A stretch of DNA of 64,000 nt from Cinnamomum chago (taxonomy: Eukaryota > Streptophyta > Magnoliopsida > Laurales > Lauraceae), in contig CP142461.1 in the NCBI GenBank assembly GCA_038049695.1, forward strand, positions 30,077,001-30,141,000. The letters are read 5' to 3'. Of the stretch, positions 5,341-49,458 are shown piece by piece (position 1 is the first letter of the stretch; each line of letters begins with the position of its first letter). The notes beneath the pieces were generated by a model. That model did no database searches. It was given only the letters and a program-made list of their open reading frames with translations, and was not told the DNA's origin. The translations under genes were made by a program, and so were the position numbers.

Positions 5341-6029
5341 CTAAAAATTGGAAGATGGTGGTGAGCTAAAGATGTATTGCGGCTGTTGTTGTTGATGGTG
5401 GTGGTGGTGATAATGATTCGATACAGTGGCCATATCCACCGTCGATGAGAAACCAGCCAAGACCTCATCAGAATTCAGTGGAATTGGAGGTTGCGGGACC
5501 GTTGGATTGGGATGTTTGTGCTGACCTTCATATGTTGTCACAACGATTGCAGGATCATCAGATGATCGTTCCACTCGTTTTTTAACACCACACAAGTGAC
5601 TAGTGCAACGGTAGTAACTCCTGAATGACAACAGTATCAACAACATTAATATTTCACATGTTACATCCTCCCTCTAGATGTCTATGATTAGATAAGATGA
5701 ATAATTAGAAATTAGAGATGGGGGAGTTCATACTTCATACCTTGGAAAAGGACTATCTTTCACAGCTTTCTGACCATATTTTCGCCATCGGTAGCCATCT
5801 TCAAGATGATCGACTTGGCTCTTAGTTATGAAAGCAAATTGAGGTTCTCTCTCCCTCTTCTGTTTCTTGGTTTTTTTCTTCTCATATTTCAGTCTAATGA
5901 AGAAAAGAATTATTTGGAAAATGTAATTAAAATCCTCAAATGTAAGAAATCACCCTAAAACTTTAATCACAAGGCCCCAGAAGTTAAAAACAATTTCCAT
6001 GTGGGGGGTTTTATTATTATCAATGAAAT

Positions 6030-6070
<41 letters not shown>

Positions 6071-8394
6071 GTTTCATGAGTGTCAAAATGGGGGGACTAG
6101 TTCCATGTGGGAACTCATCATGAAATGATACTGCATGTAAAGGAATGTGATTGATCACAAGTTAGCCCAGGGGACTATCATAGGCCCCAGGCTTTTAACA
6201 TTTCTCTTTAGCAGCTTGGGCCTTTGCATATACATCCCCAAAGAGGCGCATTTTTAGGAATGACCGGCAATTCTTAAATCTGTTGTGATCAATTCAAATC
6301 CCTCACACTACCCTCTTTCAGTTACAGTTATGCAAATCTGACACTCCCATGACACTCTTCTTTGTTAGATTGAATAAGAAAATTTGACACTCATTAAACT
6401 TTATCTAATAATTAGGGTTTGAACCTGTTTGGGACCCGTAATAGTTATTAGTTTTTATACAAAGATTGGTCATAGAAAAAGATTTTAAACCCCTTAATAC
6501 ACCAATGAGTAAAATTCAAGAAAAATATATGACAAATTAATCTATTCCCCCATTTGTTTCATGGAACTGAATCTCAAACAATTCTGAAATTTTTATTTAT
6601 AAAAGTCGTTAATGATGAAGAAACTAGGAAGAAGATTCATAAATGCTCATCGAATAATTACCCCTTCAATGGAAAATCATTTAAGGGGATATGGAAAACA
6701 AATACTCATATACCACCATAGAAAGTTAAATATAAGGAAGGAAGGGTTTCATCTACATCTCTACCTTAAACCCTTCACACCTCACCAATTCTAGTGCAAT
6801 TTGTGTATAGTTTGAGAATGCATTCAATGGACATATCCCTTTTTCTACGGAACGGAATATCCATTCCTATTATAATTTAGTAAAGAGGAGGGTTTTGGCT
6901 TTGATTTTGACCATTAGTTGGGATTTTAACCGTAAGTTATTCTTTTTTCAAATCTTTTCTCCACATTTATGTAACCACCTACTTACTTTATTTCATTATC
7001 AAAACCACCTACAGCCACTCCCCACTTCTCTTTTTTCTGCAAAAACTCCATTTTAATATAAACTCTATCATTTCCTTTCTACTCTAATTCTCCTCTTTCC
7101 AGCACTAGCTATTGAATTACATAAATAGGTACTCTCATAATCTTTTTATTCTTTTGTTTTCTTTCTAAAATCTATAAAAAAATTAATGCATGAAATTTCA
7201 AATTGCAATGTTGGCCATATCCGTGCTGAACACGTTATGCTAGTCACTCTTAAAGGAGATGATTTACCTTGACATTACAAATACACAATTGCTAAAACTA
7301 CTTTTCCTTAAAAAAAAAATGTGTTACGCCAAATTGTTAAAAGAAAACAATCGCGGAGAAGCCACTACTTTTAGGTGAACAAGGTTTTATACAACATGCC
7401 CCTAGAAATCTTATGTTGGAACCATTTGACCATGAATTCCATTCTTCTCGAAGGGGCACTAAAGTTGGTATTCATTTTATTTTAAAGGAGAATACTTTCC
7501 TAAGGACAATCCACATAGAGACATCTATGCAGAAAAATTATGTGGGGCCCACCAAGGCATTGATCCAAATGGACCATCAAAACCCCCAGCCCCTACTTCT
7601 AGAAGATCCGTTGGATTTGCACCAATCCAATTGAATTAGACCGTTGGATTGAGGGTCAAAAATATAAAGTCATTAATCTTGTGGGTCACAATCAAGGGTT
7701 AGCGTGATCTGATTGATTTACAAATTTGCAGATAGGTAGGTTACACCAAGATCTTCCGATCCCCCCACCTCTCGTCCATCTGTGATTGATGTGGCCCTAA
7801 GTGGGCCCCACAAGGCCGTCCGCACGACATCCTCAATAACTGTATCCAGCAGAGAGCATGACCGTATACTATAATATATATATATATATATAGTAATTCG
7901 ATTTAGTATCTAATTATGATGTCATGGTGATCTCATCATTCATGGGTTGGTGACCAGGCTCAACTCAACCTTAGTAGTCTTCCCATAATCATACCTGGTC
8001 CAGTTTAATAGATTTAAAGAAAAAGAATCGTACAGAGACTACTGAGCTGAAGATAATATGCAAAGACTCAAATGCATCCATCCTAAAACAAGAGAACTCA
8101 CTCTTTCTTGCTCTTCTTCTCTTCTTCTTCTACCTCCACTTTGATGTCATCTTCATTCCCAACCTCATTCGACGAAGATGAGTTGGGAGTCCCAGGAGGA
8201 AGCGTGGGTGATGCTGTTGTCATCCCCACCGTCGATGGTGGTGGCAAGTCCAACATAGACGGTCCAAAATCTTCAAGTTCCAGCAAATCCATGAAACCTA
8301 AGGAGCTGCCTTCGGGCACACCCACGTCTCCAGAAAGATCAAAGATGCTTGTAAAAGCAGAGGTGGGCTGAAACTCATCATAAAATGACTCCAT
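5341..8394 (-). CDS. WRKY transcription factor, group IIc (241 aa, 3 exons)
   Basis: Sequence-specific activator or repressor that binds W-boxes (TTGAC) in the nucleus. Exons on the minus strand are 8394-8102, 5893-5741 and 5620-5341. They join in frame to 726 nt, and all introns are GT-AG. The N-terminus has a SLGFMDLLEL motif (about residues 31-40) like that of WRKY23/48-type proteins. An acidic run and then a Lys-rich run lead to the domain. WRKYGQK is at residues 134-140. The zinc finger is C-X4-C-X23-H-X-H (C154, C159, H183, H185). The second intron (5621-5740) splits an Arg codon just after PFP, the conserved R-type position. The C-terminus is His/Gln-rich (NHYHHHHHQQQQ). The start is the ATG at 8394; an in-frame ATG 13 codons upstream lies in CT-rich leader sequence and is less likely. 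Group IIc is secure; the exact orthologue is not. Confidence 0.94.
6034..6068. repeat. (TA)n microsatellite
   Basis: About 35 bases of alternating TA within WRKY intron 1. Confidence 0.95.
6865..7243 (+). mobile_element. Short non-autonomous Helitron-like element
   Basis: It starts TCCTATTATAATTTAG and ends with a hairpin CGTGCTGAACACG followed by TTATGCTAG, with T next. This is the classic Helitron 3' layout of a short palindrome, about 5-10 bases, CTAG, then T. The same family recurs at 57360-57691: both copies share GTTTTGG-like 5' sequence, GATTTTGACC-like blocks, pyrimidine-rich middles and the terminal hairpin plus ATGCTAGT. No inverted terminal repeats or target duplication are seen, as expected. 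It lies inside WRKY intron 1 and has no coding capacity. Confidence 0.62.
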
Positions 8395-8920
8395 AGAGAG
8401 AGGGAGAGAGATATGGAATGGTATGGTATGCAATGGTATGGTTTTAACTTGTAAGGTGAGAAGGTGAGAGGAGAAGAAGTAGGGAACACGTTGTCTATAA
8501 TCTCAAATGACCGCTGTCACAGGTCGGCTTTGGCTTTGGAATGTGAATGAGAACAAGTGGGGTGTGGACTCATGTGTCAAGTCAACCAACCCACCAATAG
8601 TGATGTTGGTATAATCCAAACATCCGATTGATCTGTAGTTATTGACATTGTGCCCACCTGATGATCTGATCTCCAGATGGGCCATGCCAATTTTGATGGT
8701 TGGGATTAGAGGGTCAGGACAGATGGGGGCTGATGAGCTTCTGCCAGGCCCTCTTACCACGACCATGTGTTTGGTCATTTGATATTTTCGGCTTTGTACT
8801 AAAACGGTGGTATGAATGCGGATATGCACGCGGAGAGGAATATCGGCCGCAAACATTGATCTCACTTTGGCGCCGCGTGCATGCATCCGCTTAGCCGAGC
8901 CTTTTCTCTCTTGGTGCGTG
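8395..8920 (-). promoter_or_regulatory. WRKY upstream region with W-box cores
   Basis: Immediately upstream of the WRKY start, the minus strand shows a CT-rich leader (8395-8480). A weak TATA-like ATTATAGA lies near 8495-8502. At 8576-8586 the minus strand reads GGTTGACTTGAC, two adjacent TTGAC cores, the first a full W-box TTGACT. This would suit autoregulation or cross-regulation by WRKY proteins. A 140-residue open frame across this region shows no recognisable domain and is not called a gene. Confidence 0.4.
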
Positions 8921-22521: not shown

Positions 22522-22566
<45 letters not shown>

Positions 22567-22597
22567 GATCCCTCTCCGAGCTGAGGAGAAGATCCGC

Positions 22598-22612
22598 TCA
22601 GCACGTGGGAGA
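22598..22612 (+). promoter_or_regulatory. G-box in left TIR
   Basis: CAGCACGTGGGAGA contains the CACGTG core. The same site is preserved in the right TIR near 27911-27918, so each arm could act as a promoter reading into the element. Confidence 0.35.
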
Positions 22613-23062
22613 TGAGACACAGCTGTTTGAAAAGTCTTCATCAAAAACACATTTGATGGCCCGCCAGATTTTCAGATCCGACGAAAATATCGCACTTGGC
22701 CCGCCCATTTTATCTAAAACCCATACGACATCGGACATTCCCAGAAGTCTCCTCTCTGAGCCCTACCCTCCTCCTCGAGAGTGAAAAGCTCTCGCTTCCG
22801 CTCCCGTGTCCGCTTGCCGGCCTCTCTACCAGGTAAGGACTCCTTCCCTGTCCTGTTCTCTCCCTCTCTCCTCCCGACCCCTCTGTTTTTTTATCCTTTA
22901 GTGCCTATCAAGATGAAACTGAATCGATGATTTTGGTCTGGAAATTTGATTGTTTGGGTTATTAAGTGGGGCTTCTTTAACAGAGACTGGTTGGAGCCTT
23001 CTAAGGATAAGAAGGGCATTAGCAATTGAGCATGATTGCAATGAATCCATTGGCTTTGTAAG

Positions 23063-27300: not shown

Positions 27301-27973
27301 GCACTTTTTCAATGAACGGATAATATTGATATTTGGGCATGTCCGATTCACTACGAGAGGAATTCATCTCATTAGGATTCGTCGAAAGTGGACTCCACAG
27401 TCGACGTGTACACTGCACTTTGTGGTTATCAAGGTGCAGCAGATTGTTGCTCTTTAATAAAAAAAAACCAGAGAGGTCTGGGAGGACAGAGGGAGAGAAC
27501 AGGAGAGGGAAGGAGTCCTTACCTGGCACACACTACAGCGCTTTCCGGATAGACGATCGCAGGAGACAGATCGTCGATTTGGGCGTGCTTTCCTAACAGA
27601 CGATCGCAGGAGAGGGATCGATGATTTGGGCGTGCGTCGCTTCAAACCTCGCTCGATGTTGGGGCCTTTCCAAATGGACGATCGCAGGAGAGAGGTAGAG
27701 AGGCCGGCGGGTGGACGCGGGAGCGGGAGCTTTTCTCTCTCGGGGAGGAGGGTAGGGCACAGAGATGAGACTTCTGGGAATGCCCGATGTCGCATGGGTT
27801 TTGGATAAAATGGGCGGGCCAAGTGGGATATTTTCGTCAAATCTGAAAATCTGGGCGGGCCATCAAATGTGTTTTTGATGAAGACTTTTCAAACAGCTGT
27901 GTCTCATCTCCCACGTGCTGAGCGGATCTTCTCCTCAGCATGAGCTGAGGAGAGGGATCCTCTATATGTATAT

Positions 27974-30613: not shown

Positions 30614-30761
30614 GAGGATTTAACTGGAGAAATTTTTTTTTAATGTGCGTGTGTGATGCAATCAAATACTTTAAATGGTGGTGTGCCAATTAGAGCAATT
30701 GGGCAGATTTTTTTATTTATTTTTACCTATTTGGCATATCGTCGGCGCTGACTTTATTTAC

Positions 30762-31075
30762 ACTAAAAGTTGTAACTTTTCTAGGCATTTTTAGGAAAAA
30801 ATTTATAAGTCAGGGTCGGTGATAACCCTAACAGTGTAAAATAAGGTCATCACCGATGCAGGCTTCTTATTTTTTTGACCAAAAGTTGTAATTTTTCTAG
30901 GCGTTCTCGGGAAAAATTCTAAGTCAGAGTCAATGATAACCTTAGTAGTGTAAAATAAGGTCGTTACCGACGAAAGTTTACTATTTTTTTGACCAAAAGT
31001 TGTAACTTTTTTCAACCATTCTCTGTAAAAAGTTCTAAGTCAGGGTTGGTGATGACCCTCGTAGTCTAAAATAAG
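30762..31075. repeat. Tandem repeat, ~115-bp unit, three copies
   Basis: AAAAGTTGTAA begins units at about 30765, 30881 and 30995. Each unit continues with a GGGAAAAA-type block, AAGTCAGGGTCGGTGAT and a GTGTAAAATAAGGTC block. Confidence 0.85.
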
Positions 31076-31388
31076 TAATACAGCATCAATGGTGACATTG
31101 TATAAATTTGAAAAAAAAAATTCTAAGGAAAGGGACCAATATATTTACATCAAAAGCCCCTTAAGTGCTTCAAATACAACATTTATGAATTTTAATGCAA
31201 ACAAAAACATTTCATGCATTCAATTGACATTCAATCAATCCATCAACATCCCATATATAGTTACTTAAATTGCATGCACATCTCCTAAGTTTAAAGGTAC
31301 AAATTGACAATATCCACAACATGACCACTTCAATTACAAGTTACATTAGGATCAATATCCAAGAACACTTATAGCACAACAAATGTAG

Positions 31389-31393
31389 TTTTT

Positions 31394-31424
<31 letters not shown>

Positions 31425-31426
31425 GG
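31389..31426. repeat. T15-G23 homopolymer junction
   Basis: Fifteen T are directly followed by about 23 G, inside the Mutator-like element. It may be real or an assembly or base-calling artefact. Confidence 0.9.
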
Positions 31427-32130
31427 TTTCACTGCACGTCAGGCGGCAAGACCGGGAGTGGAGAGAGGTTAGGATAAAGCACTCAAACATAACTATACAT
31501 ACGAAAAATGACAATTTGAATAACGGTAGTTATATATCGAAAGAAAGTTCAATTGATTAGTGGTTGTGTTGTAGAGAGTATACAAACTGCGTTCGATAGC
31601 GATGGAAATGTGATGCTCTTGCCCGCACAAAAGTTGGCCTGATTGTGCATTTGAGGTACCGGCCTCGTTGTAGGGAAATTCGTCATTACTTGTATTCTCT
31701 TTAGACATCTTTGTACATCCAAATTAGACATGATAGCATTGAATGTTTTGAAGGCAAGCATACATAAAAAATGTTGACAAGACGGAAACAGTGAACACAA
31801 CAAAATTTCATACTTGCATGGAATAGTGAACACTAAAAAATGTACATTTCATAACAATCCAATATTAGAGATAGATTACGCCCACTTGATGTAAGAGATA
31901 AATGGCTTTGTCTAACACCACAATGGTTAAAGTTCATGAATGGTAAATTATTGATTTTGCAATGAAGTAAAGGATGTATTATCAATTATTTGTAACCAAC
32001 TACAGTTGTTAATATTGTTAATTTTACTTATTAATTGCATCGTATAAAAAAATATGCACTAAAAAATTGGTGCATCTCCAATTTTTACTCTCTTTACAGT
32101 TTTCATATTACAAATTTAGTTGGTTGTTTG

Positions 32131-32161
32131 CCCGTGCTCAGCACAGATTTCTCTTTCCTAG
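32131..32161 (+). mobile_element. Possible Helitron-like 3' end
   Basis: The hairpin-forming GTGCTCAGCAC is followed after 15 bases by TTCCTAG and then T. This matches the family at 7243 and 57691 in layout only. The 5' end is not seen. Confidence 0.3.
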
Positions 32162-33445
32162 TAAAGTATGAGACAAATATCATTATAGTTAAATTATCCT
32201 AACATTTTTATTTTATAACCTTTATCTTTGTATATAAACCAATATTCCTTTAAAAAATAGTCCGGTTAAAAATAGTTTCATTATTGATCGCATGGTGGTT
32301 CCCTGATAACAGTTTCAGACCTGGTTCAACTAGAATATAATTTCATAAAGAAACTAGTGACCATTTTTTAAACATGAAATGACCTAGTTTTTTGTCACTT
32401 GACTAAGACATGTTTTCTATATGGATCTCATGCATTTGAGTTGCATCAATGAGGTAGGTTTGGGCAACATACAAAAAAACCAATCAAATAAAAGGAAACT
32501 AATCAAACTATAATTTTAATTTAATTACAGATCCAACTGAATACCCAAAAACAGGATGAATCTGTTATCTTAAAGCTTTGAGACGAAAATCAACTCAATC
32601 CATTTCACAAAACAAGAAAAATGAGCAATGAGAACAAAGTCATTCTAACTGCCAAAGACGGTAACTCCTCTGAAACCATCGTCTTTCTCAACTGAAAAAA
32701 CCCCAAATTTGGAATACCACAAACCCTAGTCCATTCAAACGAACAATCTACAAATCCCACAATGACATTAAAGCCCATGTACCATGCACTTCAATAACGT
32801 ATGCGGGATTATGGGAGAACCAAAAGGAAGGAAAATACAAAGATATAGAGAAAGATTCAAATTAAATTGAAACGAGATAGATACCTCTGCAGTCAAGATG
32901 AAAAAAACATACGATAGAAAAACCGATCGAGAGCAAGAGATGCAGTTGAGGAGGAAGTTTAGAACTTGGTGCAAGTGGAAATGTCAACTACCACGCAAGA
33001 GCACTCGTCCAAGGTTTATCTCGGCGGCATACTGGAAGAGAGACGAAAATAATGAGAAGAAACAAGATTTCGAACCTTAATAGGGTTCGCGGACAAACTC
33101 AGCACCGACCTTATGCAATATAAATAAGGTCGGCACCGACAATATGCCAAATAGGTAAAAAAAAAAAAAAAAAAAGCTCTAATTGGTTCACCACCATCTA
33201 AAGTGTTTGATCGGGTCACATGTGCGCATTAAGTATTTTTTCCGCTTAATCCTCTTTTTTCTTTCTTTATTATTATTATTATTTATTTATTTTTCTTGCT
33301 AAGTTGCAAAAGAATTTTAGAAAATACCAGCGATTAAAGAAAATCCCCCCAAAAATTGGGGTTGTCATGCTACTATGTCTTCTTGATAGTTCACCAAATA
33401 GTTGATTCCTATGGATGTTATAGCATCCTGAAAAACATTAAACGG

Positions 33446-36400
33446 TGTAACGCCCCAATTCCGGATACCGATATACTCGTTCGATTTCCCGAAATTGGCG
33501 CGCTACTTCCCGGAAAATCCGAGAACTTCCAAGATCGTAGGCCGCAGTGAGGTCCAATTTAAAACTTTTTGACCAACATAGTTATAACATTTAAATTGCG
33601 GAAGCATAATGATTTAAACAAAGCGGAAGCAATAGGTATCGATGTATATATATATATATTAAGTATGAGCGGAACATCAGTCTAATTAAAATGATTCAAT
33701 ATTAATAAAAGTTAATACATTTTGAGTCTACCCAACTCACTACAAAGTTTCGCTCAAACCCAAAATAAATGGAGTCCCTCAAAACCCATGTATAAACTCC
33801 TCGTCCTCCGGCTCGACATCCGTGTCGGTCGGGCCCCAAGCGTACTCTCCTGCAACGGGTGCCTCCACTATAGCTAGTGCATCGTCTGGGATCTCAGGAT
33901 CAAGGCCTAAGCACCAATGAATGGGTCAGATCTAAACGATCTGGCAAGTTACAACATACTACTAACACAGAACATATATATCAAAGGAAGTAAAGACGAG
34001 TACATAAATTAAATGAATAGCAAGGGAAATGAACTAGGCAGTTGTGCATTTAAATCATAAGGAATCAGTATAAATAGAAACATCTAAACTACTGTAAACA
34101 AAGTGGCACATTCCCACAAGCTGGAATACCGCTGGATATTATGCCGCGGCCCTCCCATACTGAACACAGTTGCGACGGGGAAATCTCACAGTGCTGGGAA
34201 TAACTAATCCCTCAAATCATCTCATCAACTCGTCATCTCAACACTCCAGATCGGCACGGTATCACACCGTCCGTCTTAACCACACAGCTCATCATGATAG
34301 CTTCACAATACTCAACTAGCTCCTACCGGGGATGATCAGTCCACAGGCTGAGCTTAAATCAACCGAGTGAATGTTCATGCCGACTCGAGAATAACTCTAA
34401 GGGTCTGTGTCTGTCTAGGCTTTGCCTTGCGTGAACAAGGTCCTAACAATATCTCTAAGAGGTCTACACATCTCAATACAGTCTCTGGATCTCATTCAAG
34501 GTCCAGGCCCACTCGTTGGATCCATACCAAGGCCCATCAGTACACGGCCTGGTCTAAAACCGTCCAAACGAGGCAACTAATCCATCTACTACTGATAAAC
34601 AGTTCCATATAATCCATATAACTTAACAGTCCAATAGAAACTACCTCTTCAAGCTAAAGGGTTCACCTCACCACACTTAGGCCCAATAAGGGCCCGCCTA
34701 GACACAGACACGGGTCAATGATCTCCGAAATCACAGTATCGGGTCACCTCTAGATACCCTAGGTTTAGGTCTTCCAATTATGTTCAATTAATAGTAAACA
34801 GCTATTCTAAAGATCTAAGAATGACAATAAATGATAACAGTGAAGTATAAACTTCAATCAGAGAATCAACGGGAAATCCAACGGTCCAACCCTAGGTAAT
34901 GGGCCACGTTAGGTTCAGGTCCATCTCCGGTAATTCGATCTCTAAACGATGTCATTAGTGCCGTAAAATATTGTATTTGGTGCTTAGTTAGTTAATGGCA
35001 TCTAAGACAACTCTTAGAGGTCGAATCATCTTAGATTATCAACCAAAACACTAAACAGTGGTCCCCGCGAGTCAAGGTTGAGCCATACCGTTGACTCGGG
35101 CTTAGGACACTGATAAATACTCATTTGGATGGTCAATGGGCCCCACAACTGATCATATCTCCTAAATGTTGAAAACTGGAACAATCAGTGTTTTCCAGGT
35201 GAACCTGATGTGTGGTGAGCTCGGTTAATCTCCTGGTCGGGAGAATCAACCGAGTGCACTGACAAACCTGAATCAGGCTTCCTGGACAACTTAAATCGTT
35301 TCTAAAGGCTTACAGCGTGTCCGGTCAAACAACCAGGCCTAGTGATTGACCGCATACTCTAAAAACCTTAGAAAGATTGATGATCCAGCTTTAAACACTT
35401 TCTAAATGCTAATTCTAAGTTTCAGGTTGATTTGGGTGTAACCAGACTGAATTTCGGGTGAAAAGCCAACTTTCAGTCATTCCCTGCGAAAACCATGTAT
35501 AACGGGTCAACCTGGGCTAAGCCGGGTCAACCAAATTAATTGAAATGGGTTTTCTGCAAGAAAATGGCTGAAGGCCAATTTTTCCCCAAAATCTTAGTAG
35601 TCTCGGTCGACCAGGATAGGTCCCAGTCGACCCAGACCATAGAAAAGTCAGTCAGCAGAACAGAGCTAACTGGGAGCTGAAAAATCCACTTTTCCAGTGT
35701 TCTCGGTCGACCCAGAACACTGTCGGGCGAGTCCCGGGCGAGTCAGGCCGAATCTGCAGAAATTTAACTGAGGCTCATCTTTTTCAAAAATGCAGTGTCG
35801 CCGGTCGACCGAGAGGGGTCTCGGTCGACCGAGCACACTGAAATTTCAGTCCCAGTTGCATTTCTGCAACTTCTCCGTTTTGACTCCTTTTTCGCCCAAA
35901 CCACTTCCAATCACTTCCAAACTTCACCCAAACACTTCTAAACTATAAACAACTCATAAACCATCCATTAATCACCTTATGGCCCACTGATCTTCCAAAT
36001 GGGGGGTGAAAACCCCCATCCATCAGTGACCTTTCATCCAAAACAGAAAAACAGAGCTCCAGGGTGTATTCTAAGACTGAATTAAACACAAGCATGATAT
36101 TGAGCTACTGAAATCAAGAAATAAACATATGTGTGCTAAGCTAGGAGTATGAGCTCTTGCCTTTTGTAGTGAGAATTGATTTGTAGAGAGAAGAGAGAAA
36201 TAACAGAGAAGATCCAAGCCCCAGCTGTGAAGTGAGGAAGAAGAAGAAGCACAGCTGCTGTAGCAGCTCTTAAGAGTTGTTTCTAGCACAATAACAGCAG
36301 CCTCCAGCACAAAGAAATCTCAGAAGTGAGGGAGAGGAAGTGGAGGGAAAAAGGGTAGTGGCTGTAGCAGTAGCCTAAGTGGAAATTCCAGTAGAATAAC

Positions 36401-40640: not shown

Positions 40641-41736
40641 GGTTTCTTTATTAGAGTTTTTGACATATTTTTGATGTGTTGGAAAATTCAGAACATAATG
40701 TGTTTCCTTGTCTCTTGACAATTGCAAATGTCTTATTTGTTTACCATAATTTTATAAATGTCTCAAATTTCAACTAAGATCTTAAGATTTTCAACTCCTT
40801 TTATCTTTTTATAGTGTAAGTGCCTAAAAATTACTGACCTAGTTAGGAGAAGATCAAACTCTCAATTTGATTATTTGGGAATGGATTATCCTCCTGGAAC
40901 CTGAAAGGGAAAGCAAAGACAAATGTCAGAGCCCCTAGCTGCAGGCAGCCGAAGGCACTCCGATGCCTGAGTTAGTTTGGTGACTAAACTGAGGAGTGAC
41001 TGAAAAATAAGAAAGAGTATATGAATATCTCTTCTTGCATACCTTTGGTGGTTTTACCTCATGCATATATATATATATAGGCGTGAGTTTCATCATTAGG
41101 CCAAACCCCTTAGTGGGGGTAGGTGGAGATGGAAGTCTCATCAACCTGCACTTTGCCTCCTCCTGAGTGGGGGTAGGTGAAGATACTGTCCTATCTGTTC
41201 ATGCCTCAATGGCTGCGGATGTGATCGTGAGATAAGACTGACTACTTATCTAGGTCCGGCACCTAGTTTTCCTATCAGCTCGCCGTCGTACCTTTACGGT
41301 AGCACATTTATGGCTGAATGACAGCAGAGACCGAAGTCAGGCTAGGACCGAGACTAAGGTGTGCCCTGCAGATATTTTCACTGGGATGAGTTTTGGGATC
41401 TTTTCAGACTAGCACTTCTGCCGAGCTGAGTAAGATCGAGATCAAGAGTTATCCCGAAATCAAGAAATGCCTCCACACATATAGAATTTATGAATGTTCA
41501 TGAACTAAGAGAAGCATCCACGAATTCCATTATGCATGGTTACCTGGAATTCCATTATGCATGGTTAACTGACTGGAAGTCTCTTAATTCTTGAGTAAAG
41601 AAACAGGCTTCTCCTGGCTTCTCCATATGTGAGAACAAACAGCCACGTTTTACTGTTCCAAGGGTGACAAGTGTTATGGAGAACAAACAGCCACGTTTTA
41701 CTGTTCCAAGGGTGACAAGTGTGTGTTTGCCAACGT
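40641..41736. other. Intergenic with two local duplications
   Basis: A 21-bp word GAATTCCATTATGCATGGTTA occurs at 41522 and 41547. A 43-bp block starting GAGAACAAACAGCCACG occurs at 41631 and 41679. Both lie just left of the CACTA insertion. No gene seen. Confidence 0.7.
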
Positions 41737-42090
41737 CACTACAAAAAAAATGTCTTAATGAGTCACTTTTAAAGTGTCTTAAAAAGTGGTTTGTGTCGCT
41801 TTTTTTATTACTATGCAAGCGTCTTATCTGCCGGCGTCACTAAAAGTTCGTAAAAGCGTCTCAAGAAATACATTTGTTGTGTCAGTTTCTGTTATCAAAG
41901 TGACACAAAAAAATGGTTACTTATGTCACTTTAAACCCAAAAGTGACACTGAAATAACTTAAAAGCGTCACAAGAAAGATAACTTTGTTGTCTCGCTTTT
42001 CAAAAGCAGTGATCAATATGTTGTTTTTGGACCAAAAGTGACACAAGTAGTCATCAGTTGTGACAGTTTCCATAGAAGCGAGATACCATC
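41737..42090. repeat. CACTA left subterminal repeats
   Basis: Dense short words AAGTGACAC, AAGCGTC and TGTGTCGCTTT occur on both strands. These are the usual transposase-binding arrays of CACTA elements. Confidence 0.8.
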
Positions 42091-42542
42091 CATTTTTTTT
42101 AAATAAATATTTCTTTTTTCCCCCTTTTTTGGGACATTTTTTTCACTTTTATGGCCTATTTTTTAAGGATCTGAAATTTCATTAATAGAAACATCAAGAT
42201 CAGACTGATAAAAACATAGTTTATCTGTAAACAACCACAATATGGAAACAAGGAATTTAGAAGCCCTATTGATGCCAAGTATGAAGTGTGACAGATGCGG
42301 AGAAAGGAAGCTCAAAATATAAATGTGCCAAAACAAGAACCAACAAAATCAGGATAAGAAATTGTATTCAAGTCGCAACCTACATTCCTTCAATACAAAA
42401 TACAACATACACCTTAATACACAACTTAACTTTTATATAAATAGAACAATTGGCCAAGAAAATGTCCATCCAAACATCACCAAATTTTTCTTGCAAAGTT
42501 CAGCAACCTCACGGAAATACAGGCCATGTCTCACACTACCTG

Positions 42543-42720
42543 TTAAGCAGGTTGATCTTGGGAAGCAACTATAGCAACATTTTCAATTTCTTCATTTTGT
42601 GGAGCACCACTTGAACAACAAACTACAGGAGAGATGTTGATGCCCACAAACCCAACCATGATGGCAGCACCTCCAATGTAATCCATGAGATGAGGTGTCC
42701 ACAACAGCAGCCATGGGAAC
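42543..42720 (-). pseudogene. Captured last exon of a membrane protein
   Basis: An acceptor TTTAG precedes 42720, and the frame runs to TAA at 42543. The peptide starts FPWLLLWTPHLMDYIGGAAI. It has a hydrophobic helix (about residues 12-32) and then a polar acidic tail ending SQDQPA. It looks like the final helix and cytosolic tail of a multi-pass transporter. The family is not recognised, and upstream exons of the same gene were not found here. Confidence 0.45.
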
Positions 42721-44824
42721 CTAAATCGTGAGCCCTGCCGTTGTTGCTGTGGGTGTTGTTAGGAGAACAGCTTGTGCCCATAAGTAATTGCTCAGTACAT
42801 TATCTAGTAGACCTGAACATCATAGTAGTAACAACACTTTTCAGACTGATATTCTATAACTTAAGCAGAAATTATATATATAGTCAGCATCATCGTCATA
42901 CACAGAAATACAAATGAGAAAACAAGAAGATTTAAGGAAGAACAGGATGACATGTTTAAGAAAAATGGGCTAGAACACAGTAACCTAACCCTGAGATATG
43001 TAAGGAAGCCTGAAAAGTGGGTGAGAACCATGTGGATGTAAATATTTCTAAATCACTGTCAGATTAGGATTCCTTATTTGTTTATTTTTCATTTTTATTT
43101 AGGAGTTTAATGGGTATTTTGTGATCTATATAAGTAGGAAATGTTCTATTACTAGATAAACCGAGCTTCAATAACAAATGTTTGAATTGCTTATCATTCA
43201 ATTGAAGACATGGGTTCTAATAACCTGAACAACGAAAGAAGAGTTGTGAAGTACAATGAATGAACAGATGATCCTGTTGATGTCCATCAATTGGATCCAA
43301 CAAGACATGAAAAAACAGAATCCCAATATCAAAAACTCCCAACAATTATAAATTATAAATTCAAGAAGCAGATGAAGGTGCAAGGTGGAGCATCAAAGAA
43401 AAGAAGGGATTTTCATAGCAAAAATCTTACCTTTGAGTATTCTTACGAGATGTTGGCTCAGTTTTCTGAAAGTAAATTACAACCAAAGCATTGGTCAAAC
43501 TCAGCTATTGATTTAGAAAAAGAAATGAAGACACATATCTTCAGCCTGACAGCTTCCCTTTAGCTACAAATTCAAATATCCAATTTTTTTTTTCTCTGCA
43601 GTGCTGGGTAAATTGCACAAATAGCTTCTAACTACCTGTTCACCAACAACATTCAAAACAGGCATAAGATTGACATGAAAAAGGTAGAAGTTGCCAGGAT
43701 GTGCTATATAAAGCTTAAGACTAATTAATTGTTCAAGAGATCTTAAACCTGGGTGTTATCTAGACTTATCTGGGTTCAATAAAATTACATGCCCAAGTCC
43801 CTTACCTACACAATGGGAAAATTGATCCAAAGCCTCAATGAAACGCCAAACTCGATATCCCCTGACTATATCACCAAGAAAACAAGTAAGAAAGGATAAT
43901 AATTAACTTCAGAATATTAAAAAGAACAAAAAAGAAAAACAAGTCAGAAAAGACAGAAGATGTAATCCAAGAGTGGGTACTATCTTTCCATTCAATTAGA
44001 ACATGCTCAAGAATAAGGCAATTCACTCATATTACGATTGTAGGCTTATATTCTCATTTGGGTGAGTGAAACTCAATTCATTACATATGGGCATGTTTCC
44101 TCATTTGGGTTTGTGAGAGAATAAGATGAGGAAGATTGGGTGAAGTTGTTATACTTAGATAAGCATAAAAACTACTAACAAAGCAAGAAATACTATTACT
44201 TGTGCTAATAGTATCACTCACCTTCCAATGAAGAAACAGAGTGAAGAAACAGGAAACAAATAAAAATCATATTTTTTTTTCTTTGCTTACAGAGAAAATC
44301 TTTGTTTCAGAGGAGGGGCTCTCTTTTTTCTAACTTTTCATACCTCAAGTATGAAATGGAATGCCAAGAAATTCACTGATAACTCAATGTGAGGCACCTC
44401 CTTTATAAAAAGAAACAACCAGAGATTAATCTCTGGCTCTGTAGCAATGATAGCGAGGGACTTGAATGAGTGTGTGAGAGTACTCAACAAAAAAATATAA
44501 GATTGAAAAACAAAAAGAAAACGGCAAGAGGGTGGGGGCTATCATTAGCTCGTGGTCAAGTGGGGACTAAAACACCATACATCCTGCAGTGGATCATCCA
44601 CCAACAGTGATAATATGCAGATAAGGTATTTCAAACAAGTCTTTAGATAACAAAATTGAAGAGCATTGTCAATGTAAACCAATTAATTAAGTATCCATAT
44701 AGATCATAATATTAGATAAAACCAGGTGTAATCCACATTGGTTTCAAATATGAACTTGCAATAGTGACTCAAAAATAAACAAAAACTTAGTTTCAGTACA
44801 CAGGATGAATACAGTCGCAGTTTA

Positions 44825-45001
44825 TCAGGTAGTTAAACCCTGGAAGCGGCAAAACAACAGATCAGAAACTCCTGCATATTCAGTCCTAACTCTTGTGGCA
44901 GTATCCGGGTCGTTGGTGGGGTTGGCCACTATCATATTACTCAGGAGGGATTCATTAGTTATCAACGGCTGCTTTAGTTCATGATGAGATTCATCAGCCA
45001 T
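44825..45001 (-). pseudogene. Captured coding piece, unidentified (58 aa)
   Basis: An ATTAG acceptor-like site precedes an ATG at 45001. The frame reads MADESHHELKQPLITNESLL and continues with ANPTNDPDTATRVRTEYAG to a TGA at 44825. A possible donor (CAGGGTTTAA) lies near the end. The composition is coding-like, but I cannot name the source gene. Confidence 0.4.
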
Positions 45002-45162
45002 AGAACCTAATGTATATGTATGAAATGCGTCAGTAAAATTCTTTCATTACATCTGCAATTTGTTTTCACTTTTCACACTCTCTACTCACTTTTTTTTTTC
45101 AAGGATAGCAAGAAAAATCTGAGAAAAGTATTTCCCAAACTAAGATCAATCAAGAATCATAC

Positions 45163-45244
45163 CACATAGATCATTAACTTTCTTGGCCATTTCCTTAACT
45201 TCCTTCTCGGCTTTCTTTATGCTCGCAGAGTAAGGTCCCAGGCC
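45163..45244 (-). pseudogene. RPT1: Captured exon of proteasome ATPase RPT1
   Basis: An 82-nt exon with AG acceptor and GT donor encodes [20 protein letters not shown] and then KKVNDLCG. This matches the N-terminal coiled-coil region of the 26S proteasome regulatory ATPase RPT1. The AAA+ domain and all other exons are absent. It is an isolated captured exon, not a working gene. Confidence 0.85.
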
Positions 45245-45616
45245 CTGCCATTATTAGAGAAAAAAAACACCCAAAAAAAAATCAAGATTATGATTCAGAG
45301 GCTCTCACTACACTAGCTCAGAAAACAGTAAAGAAAAAGAATGCAGAAAGAACAGAAAATCAAAATCAATGACTCCCTTCAACACTGCATCAAATATTCC
45401 CTGCTGTGTTTCTGAGTTCAAAACAGAGAAGGCTTTCAGAACAAGAAATAAATGAAATCCATAGCTTGTGCAAAACAAGTTTGTCCTTTTTTTGTTGGAG
45501 AATATCATTATAACAACAATACTAACGAAATACCTGCCCAGAAAATCTTACACAAAATTTCTTCACTTAATAATGAGATATAGACAAAGGAGGGAACAGG
45601 AACCCTCAAAGGATAC

Positions 45617-45698
45617 TCCATGAAGTAAATAAGGCCTCCATTTGGACCTAAGCCGAGTTCCTCCATGACATCATCCAAGCATATGAGTTCTCTAATAT
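45617..45698 (-). pseudogene. GPN3: Captured exon 3 of GPN-loop GTPase 3
   Basis: An 82-nt exon encodes DIRELICLDDVMEELGLGPN, then GGLIYFME; the first Asp codon is completed by the last G of the preceding exon. GLGPNGG contains the Gly-Pro-Asn loop that names the family. Donor GT lies at 45616-45615. Joins in phase with 45808-45916. Confidence 0.93.
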
Positions 45699-45807
45699 CT
45701 GAAGGCAAAGAATTCATCAAAAGAATGTACATAGTTTTCAAACAACAGAGTAAAAATTTACAGTTCAGAAGACTTGAGAATAAAAAGGAAATGTAACTAG
45801 TAGATAC

Positions 45808-45916
45808 CCATTGCTACAGGATAGTCAAAGCTCTCTGCTGCAGGATCTAGGTTCACAATATGCATCGTTCTCCGAATGGTTTCACAATGTCGGTACAAAC
45901 TAGAGCAGTAAGTAGA
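45808..45916 (-). pseudogene. GPN3: Captured exon 2 of GPN-loop GTPase 3
   Basis: A 109-nt exon encodes [20 protein letters not shown], then [16 protein letters not shown]. In intact GPN3 it follows the first exon, which carries the P-loop. Here the upstream side is instead a long A run (45930-45953 on the plus strand). So the nucleotide-binding P-loop, and all exons after exon 3, are missing. Intact GPN3 helps RNA polymerase II assembly and nuclear import. Confidence 0.93.
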
Positions 45917-46827
45917 CTGATTCAGCAGAAAAAAAAAAAAAAAAAAAAAAAAAAGGTCAGAGAGGCCAAAGGATACAGTGGCTTCCATTGAGTAATTGTA
46001 TTATGTTGTAAATGAAAATTAATCCTGCCATCAATAGAACAGATAACTGCAATAAACCCATTCATCATTAAAAGTTGAAAAAAAAAATTAGGACCTTATG
46101 TAAGGAAAATACTCAGGCAAGCATATTAATACCCAACATTAGACTTCTTTTCTTTCACAAGGCAAGGTGATTTGCTACCCATACACAAAATCCACTAGTT
46201 AACATGCTATCATCTTAAAAGAAAAAACTTCATCAACATCACAAAACCACAACCAACTTTGCAAGTATGTCAAAAAGACAAACCATGTGAACTACTTAAA
46301 ACAATAACTTTGACTGATATCTTAGAGCTGAAAGTTAAAACTTCATTGTCATGATTTTATATTATGGATTACATAATAATTTAGTACCTGTCATACAGAG
46401 AATGACACTGCCTGGAGAGATCCAAGCCTCCTTTGGATTGCCATTGAAAAGGGATGGGGGATCAAAAGAGAAGAAAAAATCACACTGGATAAATCCCCCT
46501 AAACCTGCTATCGAAAACCATGCTGGAGTTTCCCATCTGCCCTACAACCTGATTGATCCAGCAGCAAAATCTGTACACGAATTCTCTGTTTACAAGAACA
46601 TTACACAAAACAGAGAGTCCAATCCTGGAATTTTCTGGGCAGTCCACACTAGCATTTCATGATTAGAACAATGAATATGACATTAGAAATGGGACAAAGG
46701 TTATAGTGTATTGCTGCCTCCTAAACAGGAGTTTACAAATGAAACAAGAAAAGAAATAAATGAAATAAAAAGGAACAGAAAAGAAGAAAAATGGGATGAA
46801 TAAACAATACAATACCTCAAATTGACA

Positions 46828-46959
46828 TCAACATAGATGAATCATGTGCTGGTATAACTTCTGTATGTAGTTCCCAACCACATGCATCTTTCTATCTGAA
46901 CAACTGTTTGGAGCCAAAAGGCTGAAGTTGGTGAGTCGTTGACCAATTTGGAGGCAGCA
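46828..46959 (-). pseudogene. Captured exon-like piece, unidentified
   Basis: After a pyrimidine-rich TTTTGCCAG acceptor, the frame CCLQIGQRLTNFSLLAPNSC continues with SDRKMHVVGNYIQKLYQHMI to a stop at 46828. A GAG-GTATTG donor context follows near 46813. Coding-like and helical, but the family is not recognised. Confidence 0.4.
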
Positions 46960-48290
46960 CTGGCAAAACAATATTTTAATCAGTTTTGAACAAGAACAAT
47001 TTAGCAATTTACAAGTTTTGAGTCTATAACATGTACAGATTATTGTAAACAATTTAGTTGTAATCAAGATCTAATCATTTATATGCAGATTGTAATCAAG
47101 CCCATGATATAAGGCACCTAGAAGCAGATTGTAATCAACCCATGAAATATCGACACCTCATACTGTACATGGGACAATCCTCTCAAGGAGAGGCAGGTTA
47201 TTCAATTGCAAATTTCTTGGTTTCTTTTGAAATAGATGGTATCAGTCTCAGAGCAAGGTTGCCCAATTGAGAGTGGGTCCTGTCCTAGTTGTATAAGTTC
47301 TGTTCGCCTTTGGGTTGTGGGCGGACTCAGCTCTCTGTTCCTTGTCTCATTTCCAAAAGATGGTTTTTGACCCACTGGTGTACTTGAAAGGGGAGAAGCC
47401 TGGGGTTCTCAAAGCCCTAGGGTCTTGTGGTTTTAGTTAAAAACCTAGTTAAAAACTCTACACAATTCATAACCCACTTGATAAAATGATACCAAGTATG
47501 AGATCTGAAAGGCACTTTCTGGGAATAAGTACCAAAAGGAAAACTACCAAAATGCCACTGCATGCAGATCACAAAAGAAATGAACATCAATAATTTAGGC
47601 TGATGGCATTGTCATCAACACATGATTAGGTAGTGTAAAAAAGATCAGAACACCAACAACTTTAATTTCACTTTGATACTTGTCATAACTACAATGCGAA
47701 AATAGAGGCACCATCATCAGATTTCACATGCTCATGCAACATAGCATCCAATCCATTCTCACATCTAGATACCCATCTTAAGACCTTTTCCAAAACCTAA
47801 TTAATTTCCATTAAAAACTTTCAAATGGACAACTAAACCCTAAATGCTTTCGATATTATGGGGGAAGAAACATGAAGCAAGAGATGGGATTGAAACGGAA
47901 CTCTAGCAAGTCACAGAACATGTGAATATAAATGAACATTTCGGGACTCAAAATCATCAAAAAAGGCAAAAGGTTATAACAAATTAGAAGCTCTTATGAG
48001 AGTGCCATAGAGAGGAAGCAAAATGAAAGAATCTGAAAGTAAACACAAAGTAAATCAGAACATGAAAACTCCTCAATTCAAGGCAAAATGAAAGAATTCG
48101 CTGCCATGCCTGTCGATTGGGGGAGAGTGAAGAAGAAGAAGAAAAAAAAAAGGGATTTTTTTTTTGTTTGGGTCTCAGCAAAATCAAGGCAGAGAAAGGG
48201 GAAAATTGGGCATTTTGTGAATCCTGAAGAAATCACATCACAATCCCTCGAAATCCAAATGACCCAGATCACAAAATCCAGAGAATTCAC

Positions 48291-48375
48291 CTGATTCGCC
48301 TTCGGCGAGCTTCTCCAGCTTTGCCCCAACCAAACGCCTCTCATCTACACCACCAGCTTTCAGCTCATAAATCAC
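48291..48375 (-). pseudogene. TWD40-1: Captured exon 2 of TWD40-1 (TSET/TPLATE subunit)
   Basis: An 85-nt exon encodes VIYELKAGGVDERRLVGAKL, then EKLAEGES. TAG acceptor, CAG-GTGAAT donor. It continues exon 1 in frame. Later exons of this >1000-residue WD40 protein are absent. Confidence 0.9.
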
Positions 48376-48456
48376 CTACAAACAAGAACCCACAAATGAT
48401 CAATCAAGTTGCATCAGAGAGAGAAAGAGACCAATTTCAAAGAAGAAGATACCCAC

Positions 48457-48588
48457 CTGGCGATGCTCCCAGTTCCATACGGATACATGATCCGATGCGT
48501 CTGCCGTGACGAGCCATGGATGCGTCGGATGGAGCTGGATCTTCACGATCTTGTCGTTTGAAGGACGAAATGCTCTCAATCGCAGCAT
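48457..48588 (-). pseudogene. TWD40-1: Captured exon 1 of TWD40-1 with its ATG
   Basis: A 44-codon exon starts MLRLRAFRPSNDKIVKIQLH and contains a WD-repeat strand (PWLVTADASDHVSVWNWEHR). It ends at CAG-GTGGGT. This matches the start of the plant TPLATE/TSET endocytic adaptor subunit TWD40-1. The leader and perhaps promoter (48589-48790) appear to have come along, which could drive transcription into the element. Only two exons are present. Confidence 0.9.
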
Positions 48589-48814
48589 ACTTTTCGAGTG
48601 GAGGATTGAAAGAAATTTGAGGAAGTAGTGGAGACTAGTAGAGATCTGAAGGAGATGGAAGCAAATCTGCCATTAACGGATGGAAGTCTCTTGAGGAACG
48701 AATACGATGCAGGTCTGGTTTTTTCTGCAGTGAGATGCGTAGTGGAGTCGATTAGGGTTGGAGTGAGGGAATGAAATGCTTACGATGGAGGGAACCCAAA
48801 TTATCACTTGCCCA

Positions 48815-49455
48815 AATTCATGTGTCGCTTTTCTTTCCTATTTCATGAAAGAAAATAACAATCAAACTTCTTGTGTCACTTTTGTTTAGTGGGGAAAATC
48901 ATAAATTTATTTTATGTGTCGCGTTATAGAAAAGTGACCCAACAAACCTCCTCCTCGTTAAGAGCAACTCCAACAGAGGAGTTATTTCTCCATGTCAGCA
49001 TGAGTTGGCAAGAAACGGTCAAAAATGGCATATGGGGATGACCTCCAACAGAGATGGTAAAAGTGAGTTGGAAAAGGCATATGGGTTGATATGTTTTTTT
49101 TTGCATATGGAAAGGCAACTTTCATTTCTTACTTTTTCAATATAATAATACAAGTTAGTGGTTCTTAGGAGATATATGTAATAAAGCAAATGAAGTTTAA
49201 ATGAAAAAAGAATAAAATAATAATTTGACATCTCTCTTGGTGTTGCCCAAGTGAGATGCCAAATTTACATATGCCTTTTTTTTGCCACATAAGCCATTTT
49301 TTTTAAAAAGGCATATGGAGAAATAAAGTAGCTCTTGGAGATGCTCTAACTCCTCCTCTAAAGTGACACATCAGACCATACTGTGTTACTTTATTGTAAA
49401 AGCGACACAAAAGCTCGTTTCAAAAGCGAGACTAAAAGTCCTTTTTTTTATAGTG
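48815..49455. repeat. CACTA right subterminal repeats
   Basis: Words TGTGTCGCTTTT, TGTGTCACTTTT and AAAGTGACACA match the left subterminal array. They are interrupted by a MITE at 48962-49346. Confidence 0.8.
48962..49346. mobile_element. Harbinger-type MITE inside the CACTA end
   Basis: 385 bp with ends GAGCAACTCCAACAGAGGAG and, inward from the right, GAGCATCTCCAAGAGCTAC. Both continue to ATTTCTCCAT and GGCATATG-like words. Exact TAA duplications at 48959-48961 and 49347-49349 fit PIF/Harbinger. It interrupts the subterminal repeats, so it is younger than the CACTA insertion or rode along with it. Non-coding. Confidence 0.82.
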
Positions 49456-49458
49456 CGT

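What the first reader, a model, noticed from the sequence alone, without database searches (positions are those of the whole stretch)
41737..49455. CACTA element carrying exons of three or more unrelated housekeeping genes
Exact CACTA ends, a CGT target duplication and subterminal arrays enclose exons 1-2 of TWD40-1 (endocytosis), exons 2-3 of GPN3 (Pol II assembly), one exon of RPT1 (proteasome) and at least three further coding-like pieces. All are in the same orientation, with splice sites preserved. Multi-gene capture in one CACTA element is unusual, and a same-strand arrangement suggests selection for, or a mechanism of, oriented capture (for example RNA-guided or successive gap repair). 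It could also be a source of small RNAs against essential genes.
Basis: partly seen in the sequence, partly recalled or inferred. Interest (0 to 1): 0.88.

Follow-up and report, generated by a model that had tools for sequence, protein, structure and literature searches.

The report
Jumping gene carrying plant gene scraps
A plant cut-and-paste transposon has picked up short pieces of at least four unrelated host genes; such gene-gathering elements are already well described in several plants, so this is a tidy new example rather than a new phenomenon.

Summary
Mostly right. Bases 41737-49455 (7719 bp) form a CACTA element: matched CACTACAAAAAAAA-type ends (1 mismatch in 13), a CGT target duplication, and AAAGYG-type repeats clustered at both ends. 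On the minus strand it carries TWD40-1 exons 1-2, two GPN3 exons and one RPT1 exon, with GT/AG borders and two introns kept. A fourth gene is the broken last exon of an SLC35F5/THI74-like transporter. No transposase was recognised: a non-autonomous Pack-CACTA. Retained introns argue for DNA-level capture. Multi-gene capture is known: soybean Tgm-Express1 carries five gene fragments, spliced into one transcript, and maize Pack-CACTAs often hold several loci. Four of four genes on one strand has coin-toss probability 0.125, so oriented capture is not shown; the full exon chain goes out of frame. Parent loci, other copies, transcripts and small RNAs were not examined: the host-genome search did not complete. 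New member of a known kind.

The parts
41734..41736 (.). left target-site duplication CGT
41737..49455 (.). complete non-autonomous CACTA element (7719 bp)
41737..42086 (+). left end: CACTACAAAAAAAATG terminus and subterminal AAAGYG-type array (10 motif matches in 350 bp)
42543..42812 (-). last exon, with its stop codon, of an SLC35F5/THI74-like EamA-family transporter; broken by an in-frame TAG and a frameshifting deletion
   Evidence: gene name from source labels of P0160, P0194 and P0197; borders placed by eye
44839..45006 (-). unassigned coding-like ORF between an AG and a GT (borders placed by me); gene unknown, may be chance
45163..45244 (-). one internal exon of RPT1 (26S proteasome regulatory subunit 7)
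   Evidence: E 1.5e-9 to chain 8amz_H; AG/GT borders
45617..45698 (-). GPN3 exon 3; acceptor clear, donor placed at GTATCC and uncertain by a few bases (the PDB alignment runs one residue past it)
45699..45807 (-). retained GPN3 intron (109 bp, GT..AG)
45808..45916 (-). GPN3 exon 2
   Evidence: joined with exon 3, PF03029 1.2e-22 and PDB GPN3 2.3e-18
48291..48375 (-). TWD40-1 exon 2
48376..48456 (-). retained TWD40-1 intron 1 (81 bp, GT..AG)
48457..48588 (-). TWD40-1 coding part of exon 1, with start codon
48589..48805 (-). probable TWD40-1 5' untranslated/upstream DNA; outer limit uncertain
   Evidence: lies between the start codon and the right subterminal array; inference
48806..49455 (-). 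right end: subterminal array (7 motif matches in 650 bp) and TAGTG terminus, interrupted by a nested MITE
48962..49346 (.). nested MITE-like insertion, ends GAGCAACTCC / GAGCATCTCC, TAA on both sides
49456..49458 (.). right target-site duplication CGT

Best explanation
This is a non-autonomous CACTA (En/Spm) transposon of the Pack-CACTA kind in a plant genome. It keeps the ends needed in cis (terminal inverted repeats and subterminal arrays); in place of its own genes it holds fragments of at least four host genes taken up at the DNA level, probably in successive events. It would be moved by a transposase supplied in trans. Shown here: ends, target duplication, arrays, gene fragments, retained introns, splice borders, no recognisable transposase. 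Inferred: mobility in trans, stepwise capture by gap repair or by fusion of neighbouring elements, and occasional chimeric transcripts as in Tgm-Express1.
For: Ends and CGT duplication; end-restricted motif arrays (10, 7 and 1 in left, right and middle); GPN3 (E 2.3e-18, PF03029 1.2e-22); RPT1 (E 1.5e-9); TWD40-1-like (best E 1.6e-40, 97% over all 72 residues to an Ilex paraguariensis protein); SLC35F5/THI74-like (best E 8.1e-25). Of the 11 relatives of the TWD40-1 piece that I read, P0007 and P0010 run on past the exon-2 end into KGKPTEAI, six (P0001, P0002, P0004, P0008, P0020, P0021) leave the shared sequence right after EGES or EGET, P0003 two residues before, P0024 at the exon-1 end after HRQV, and P0013 earlier; so the exon limits agree with other plants. 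Introns of 81 and 109 bp kept. No Pfam match among 84 further ORFs. Same anatomy and size class as Tgm-Express1 (5.7 kb, five fragments) and Tpn1 elements (339 copies, mean 7081 bp).
Against: No second copy with these ends was seen, because the host genome could not be searched; with one copy, mobility is inferred. The middle holds no cluster of end motifs (1 match), so the tandem-fusion capture model of Pack-CACTA gains no support here. In 100 shuffled windows one matching end pair with equal flanks also turned up, so the ends alone are significant only at about 1%; the arrays carry the case. The name TWD40-1 is recalled: the solved structures nearest to that piece are coatomer subunits (best E 5.4e-15), Pfam WD40 is below its cut-off, and source labels read 'WD40 repeat protein', 'hypothetical' or, for P0013, 'Anaphase-promoting complex subuni'.
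Confidence: 0.93

Rival explanations
1. Oriented capture under selection: pieces are kept on one strand and in first-internal-last exon order because the element is transcribed and spliced as a gene-like unit, which either makes a chimeric product or hides it from silencing.
For: On the minus strand the element runs from a first exon with start codon (TWD40-1) through internal exons (GPN3, RPT1) to a last exon with stop codon (SLC35F5-like). TWD40-1 exon 1 joined to the two GPN3 exons stays in GPN3's own frame, 107 codons in all. In Tgm-Express1 all five fragments are used as exons of one transcript, hence on one strand (inference).
Against: Four of four on one strand has probability 0.125 by chance (0.0625 if the unassigned ORF is counted). 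The chain of all six exons stops after 77 codons, and the last exon is broken. In grapevine Cactavine-5 a captured fragment lies opposite to the transposase gene, so direction is not fixed in every CACTA element. No transcript data.
Confidence: 0.1
2. Capture from mature RNA (reverse transcripts) instead of DNA.
For: Exons dominate what can be recognised.
Against: TWD40-1 intron 1 and the GPN3 intron are present with GT/AG borders, and the single RPT1 exon is flanked by splice sites. Only unspliced pre-mRNA would remain possible.
Confidence: 0.03
3. A Helitron or Pack-MULE rather than a CACTA element.
For: Both also gather gene fragments (for maize Helitrons; for rice Pack-MULEs with several loci).
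Against: The ends are CACTA..TAGTG inverted repeats with a 3-bp duplication. The 9 bp on either side differ (TGCCAACGT and CGTGCAACC), against the 9-bp duplication of MULEs; Helitrons have neither inverted ends nor a duplication (both recalled).
Confidence: 0.01

Closest known systems
Tgm-Express1 of soybean (CACTA; PMC1947982)
   Same: CACTA element of 5.7 kb with five unrelated host gene fragments, exons and introns with canonical splice sites, all usable as exons of one transcript, hence on one strand (inference).
   Different: Other genes captured; sits in intron 2 of F3H, whereas whether this element lies in a gene was not tested; transcripts shown there, not here.
Tpn1 family of Ipomoea nil (CACTA; PMC5105172)
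   Same: Non-autonomous elements with conserved ends and subterminal repeats whose interior is replaced by host gene DNA; 3-bp duplications in all but one; mean length 7081 bp (passages).
   Different: Tpn1 ends are 28-bp inverted repeats with 122-bp and 104-bp subterminal tandem repeats; here short AAAGYG-type units.
Pack-CACTA of Arabidopsis and maize (PMC8903248 and sources cited there)
   Same: CACTA ends, captured coding DNA, several loci in one element.
   Different: Annotated there as clusters of related copies; copy number unknown here. No cluster of end motifs inside, which the fusion model might leave.
CACTA-captured genes of wheat chromosome 3B (PMC4290129)
   Same: CACTA-mediated capture of gene fragments, some transcribed or chimeric (passages).
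   Different: Those were found as genes flanked by two elements of one known family; this family is unnamed.

Membership tests
CACTA (En/Spm) superfamily | terminal inverted repeats beginning CACTA | tested here: met
   12 of 13 end positions agree
CACTA (En/Spm) superfamily | 3-bp target-site duplication | tested here: met
   CGT/CGT
CACTA (En/Spm) superfamily | subterminal arrays of short direct and inverted repeats | tested here: met
   10 and 7 motif matches at the ends, 1 in the middle; shuffle maximum 2
CACTA (En/Spm) superfamily | transposase gene (autonomous members only) | tested here: not met
   no transposase family among 90 of the 95 ORFs of 40 residues or more; the other 5 overlap identified exons. 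Short or decayed remnants could be missed. So non-autonomous
Pack-CACTA | host coding DNA inside, no transposase | tested here: met
Pack-CACTA | multiple copies / mobilised in trans | not tested
   The genome search did not answer in nine tries
Tgm-Express-like multi-gene CACTA | exons of several unrelated genes with splice sites on one strand | tested here: met
   for five exons of three genes; for the fourth gene
Tgm-Express-like multi-gene CACTA | chimeric transcripts | not testable with these tools
   no RNA data
Pack-MULE | about 9-bp duplication and long inverted repeats (recalled) | tested here: not met
   flanking 9-mers differ
Helitron | no inverted ends, no target duplication (recalled) | tested here: not met
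   inverted ends and CGT duplication present

The most novel reading that the evidence does not exclude
CACTA elements gather exons in a fixed transcriptional direction and in first-internal-last order, so that the whole element behaves as one spliced pseudo-gene (as in Tgm-Express1), through a capture route tied to transcription or through selection for being spliced out harmlessly or escaping silencing.
Probability: 0.08. Interest if true: 0.6.

Novelty: new member of a known kind. Interest (0 to 1): 0.25.

Why it matters
It adds a clean multi-gene Pack-CACTA, with pieces of essential genes (endocytosis, Pol II assembly, proteasome), to a known class. The useful part is the gene-like order of exons on one strand, which a genome-wide survey in the same plant could test as a general rule.

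Tried and rejected
Host-genome search for parent loci and other copies: the genome search 'own' gave no answer in nine identical tries. Identity of the ORF at 44839-45006: nothing in Pfam at E 1, in the protein collection (no candidate, unpadded query of 72 residues, so only proteins of similar length were eligible) or in the PDB at E 10. A third coding-like piece: none among the 90 ORFs of 40 residues or more scanned. Rfam over the whole window at the gathering threshold: no match. Internal cluster of end motifs as a trace of element fusion: 1 match in 6719 bp. A coding role by in-frame fusion: the full six-exon chain stops after 77 codons; of 31 exon subsets that start with TWD40-1 exon 1 the longest open frame is 136 codons. 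Species: the TWD40-1 piece is nearest to Ilex paraguariensis, which does not fix the species; one paper search for CACTA in Ilex (listing only) was not followed up. Direction of captured pieces as a published topic: searches gave no paper on it that I saw. Papers asked for but not held: PMC6379663, PMC1242261; Kawasaki and Nitasaka 2004 was seen only as a reference in other papers.

Full report
Element. The finding's coordinates hold. The left end CACTACAAAAAAAATG begins at 41737 and the right end ..TTTTTTTTATAGTG closes at 49455; both are flanked by CGT. In the first 13 positions the ends differ once. A search of the whole window for CACTA/TAGTG pairs 0.5-20 kb apart with equal 3-bp flanks gave 18 pairs, of which only this one has ends that agree to within one mismatch; 100 dinucleotide shuffles of the window gave one such pair in all. 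Short AAAGYG-type repeats stand at both ends: 10 in the left 350 bp, 7 in the right 650 bp, 1 in the middle 6719 bp and 10 in the 56281 bp outside the element, against a maximum of 2 in 500 shuffles of each end. These features define a CACTA element.

Cargo. All recognisable pieces are on the minus strand. (1) 48588-48457 and 48375-48291 encode MLRLRAFRP..EGES, found at up to 97% identity over all 72 residues in plant proteins (127 hits of 127 candidates, 120 listed). The gene name TWD40-1 is recalled; no source prints it. The nearest solved structures are coatomer subunits (E 5.4e-15), Pfam WD40 stays below its cut-off, and one hit, P0013, is labelled as an anaphase-promoting complex subunit. 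Of 11 relatives read, P0007 and P0010 run on past the exon-2 end into KGKPTEAI, six leave the shared sequence right after EGES or EGET, P0003 two residues before, P0024 after HRQV at the exon-1 end, and P0013 earlier. (2) 45916-45808 and 45698-45617 encode GPN3 residues (GPN-loop GTPase 3 in the PDB, E 2.3e-18; PF03029, 1.2e-22). The donor of the second is my placement and uncertain by a few bases. (3) 45244-45163 encodes 27-28 residues of RPT1 (26S proteasome regulatory subunit 7, E 1.5e-9). (4) 42812-42543 is the last exon of an EamA-type transporter: 78 relatives, best E 8.1e-25, with source names such as 'solute carrier family 35 protein F5' and 'THI74-like'. A premature TAG stands where relatives have a glutamine, and five residues are missing across a frameshift. 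P0125, 93% identical in the alignment (85% over 63% of the query), lacks that deletion. The deletion fits a loss of 17 bases between two CACC repeats (inferred from the protein, not from parent DNA). (5) 45006-44839 is an ORF between AG and GT with no relative found. Of the 95 ORFs of 40 residues or more in the element, 84 gave no Pfam match at E 0.01, 6 none at E 1, and 5 overlap exons named above.

DNA or RNA. TWD40-1 intron 1 (81 bp) and the GPN3 intron (109 bp) are retained with GT..AG borders, and the TWD40-1, GPN3 and RPT1 exons carry splice sites (TWD40-1 exon 1 its donor only). Capture of mature mRNA is therefore unlikely. Break points could not be mapped without the parents.

Orientation and frame. 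Four named genes on one strand has probability 2 x (1/2)^4 = 0.125; counting the unassigned ORF, 0.0625. This is not evidence for oriented capture. The order first exon, internal exons, last exon is gene-like and worth noting, but the chain of all six exons stops after 77 codons. Leaving out TWD40-1 exon 2 keeps GPN3 in its own frame, 107 codons in all; if the RPT1 exon follows, the frame ends at codon 117. The broken last exon further argues against a maintained product.

What is known. Tgm-Express1 in soybean (abstract, passages and sections 5 and 8 seen) carries five unrelated gene fragments in a 5.7-kb CACTA element, and the larger cDNAs contain all five as exons, so even the one-strand arrangement has a precedent (my inference from the splicing). 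PMC8903248 (passages, sections 9 and 10) finds coding DNA of more than one locus often in maize Pack-TYPE elements, most in Pack-CACTA; in rice only Pack-Mariners showed a significant number. Tpn1 elements of morning glory (passages) replace their interior with host gene DNA and average 7081 bp. Wheat 3B shows 140 CACTA capture events (passages), and in 22 Mb of maize 5 CACTA elements carry gene fragments (passages). Chenopodium CACTA elements also hold captured gene fragments (passages). In grapevine a CACTA family holds a fragment in opposite orientation to its transposase (passages). A 2026 review (PMC13317346, passages) describes capture by fusion of neighbouring Pack-CACTA elements.

Verdict. 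A well-preserved, non-autonomous Pack-CACTA with pieces of at least four host genes: a new member of a known kind. Untested: other copies, parents, transcripts and small RNAs.

Noticed in passing
48959-49349: A 385-bp MITE-like insertion (ends GAGCAACTCC/GAGCATCTCC, TAA on both sides; PIF/Harbinger-like by recall) sits inside the right subterminal region, so it probably landed after the element had formed.
   Followed up: partly
41631-41721: A 43-bp sequence occurs twice (starts 41631 and 41679) just outside the left end of the element, and a 21-bp one twice at 41522 and 41547.
   Followed up: no
1-1725 and 33444-35180: Two inverted copies, 91% identical over 1745 columns, one with a TGTAACGCCCC-like start and the other cut by the window's edge; probably one repeat family.
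   Followed up: no
30640-33232: Another stretch with inverted ends (121 columns, 78.5% identical) and internal direct repeats near 30754-31075, perhaps a second DNA transposon.
   Followed up: no
5341-8502: Minus-strand WRKY gene: end of the WRKY domain at 5341-5673 (E 6.5e-14); the ORF at 8098-8502 may be its first exon (by eye, no Pfam match).
   Followed up: partly
22552-22892 and 27462-27973: Inverted copies 89-92% identical of a short repeat.
   Followed up: no
45929-45954: Run of 26 A (T on the minus strand) that ends 12 bases upstream of GPN3 exon 2.
   Followed up: no
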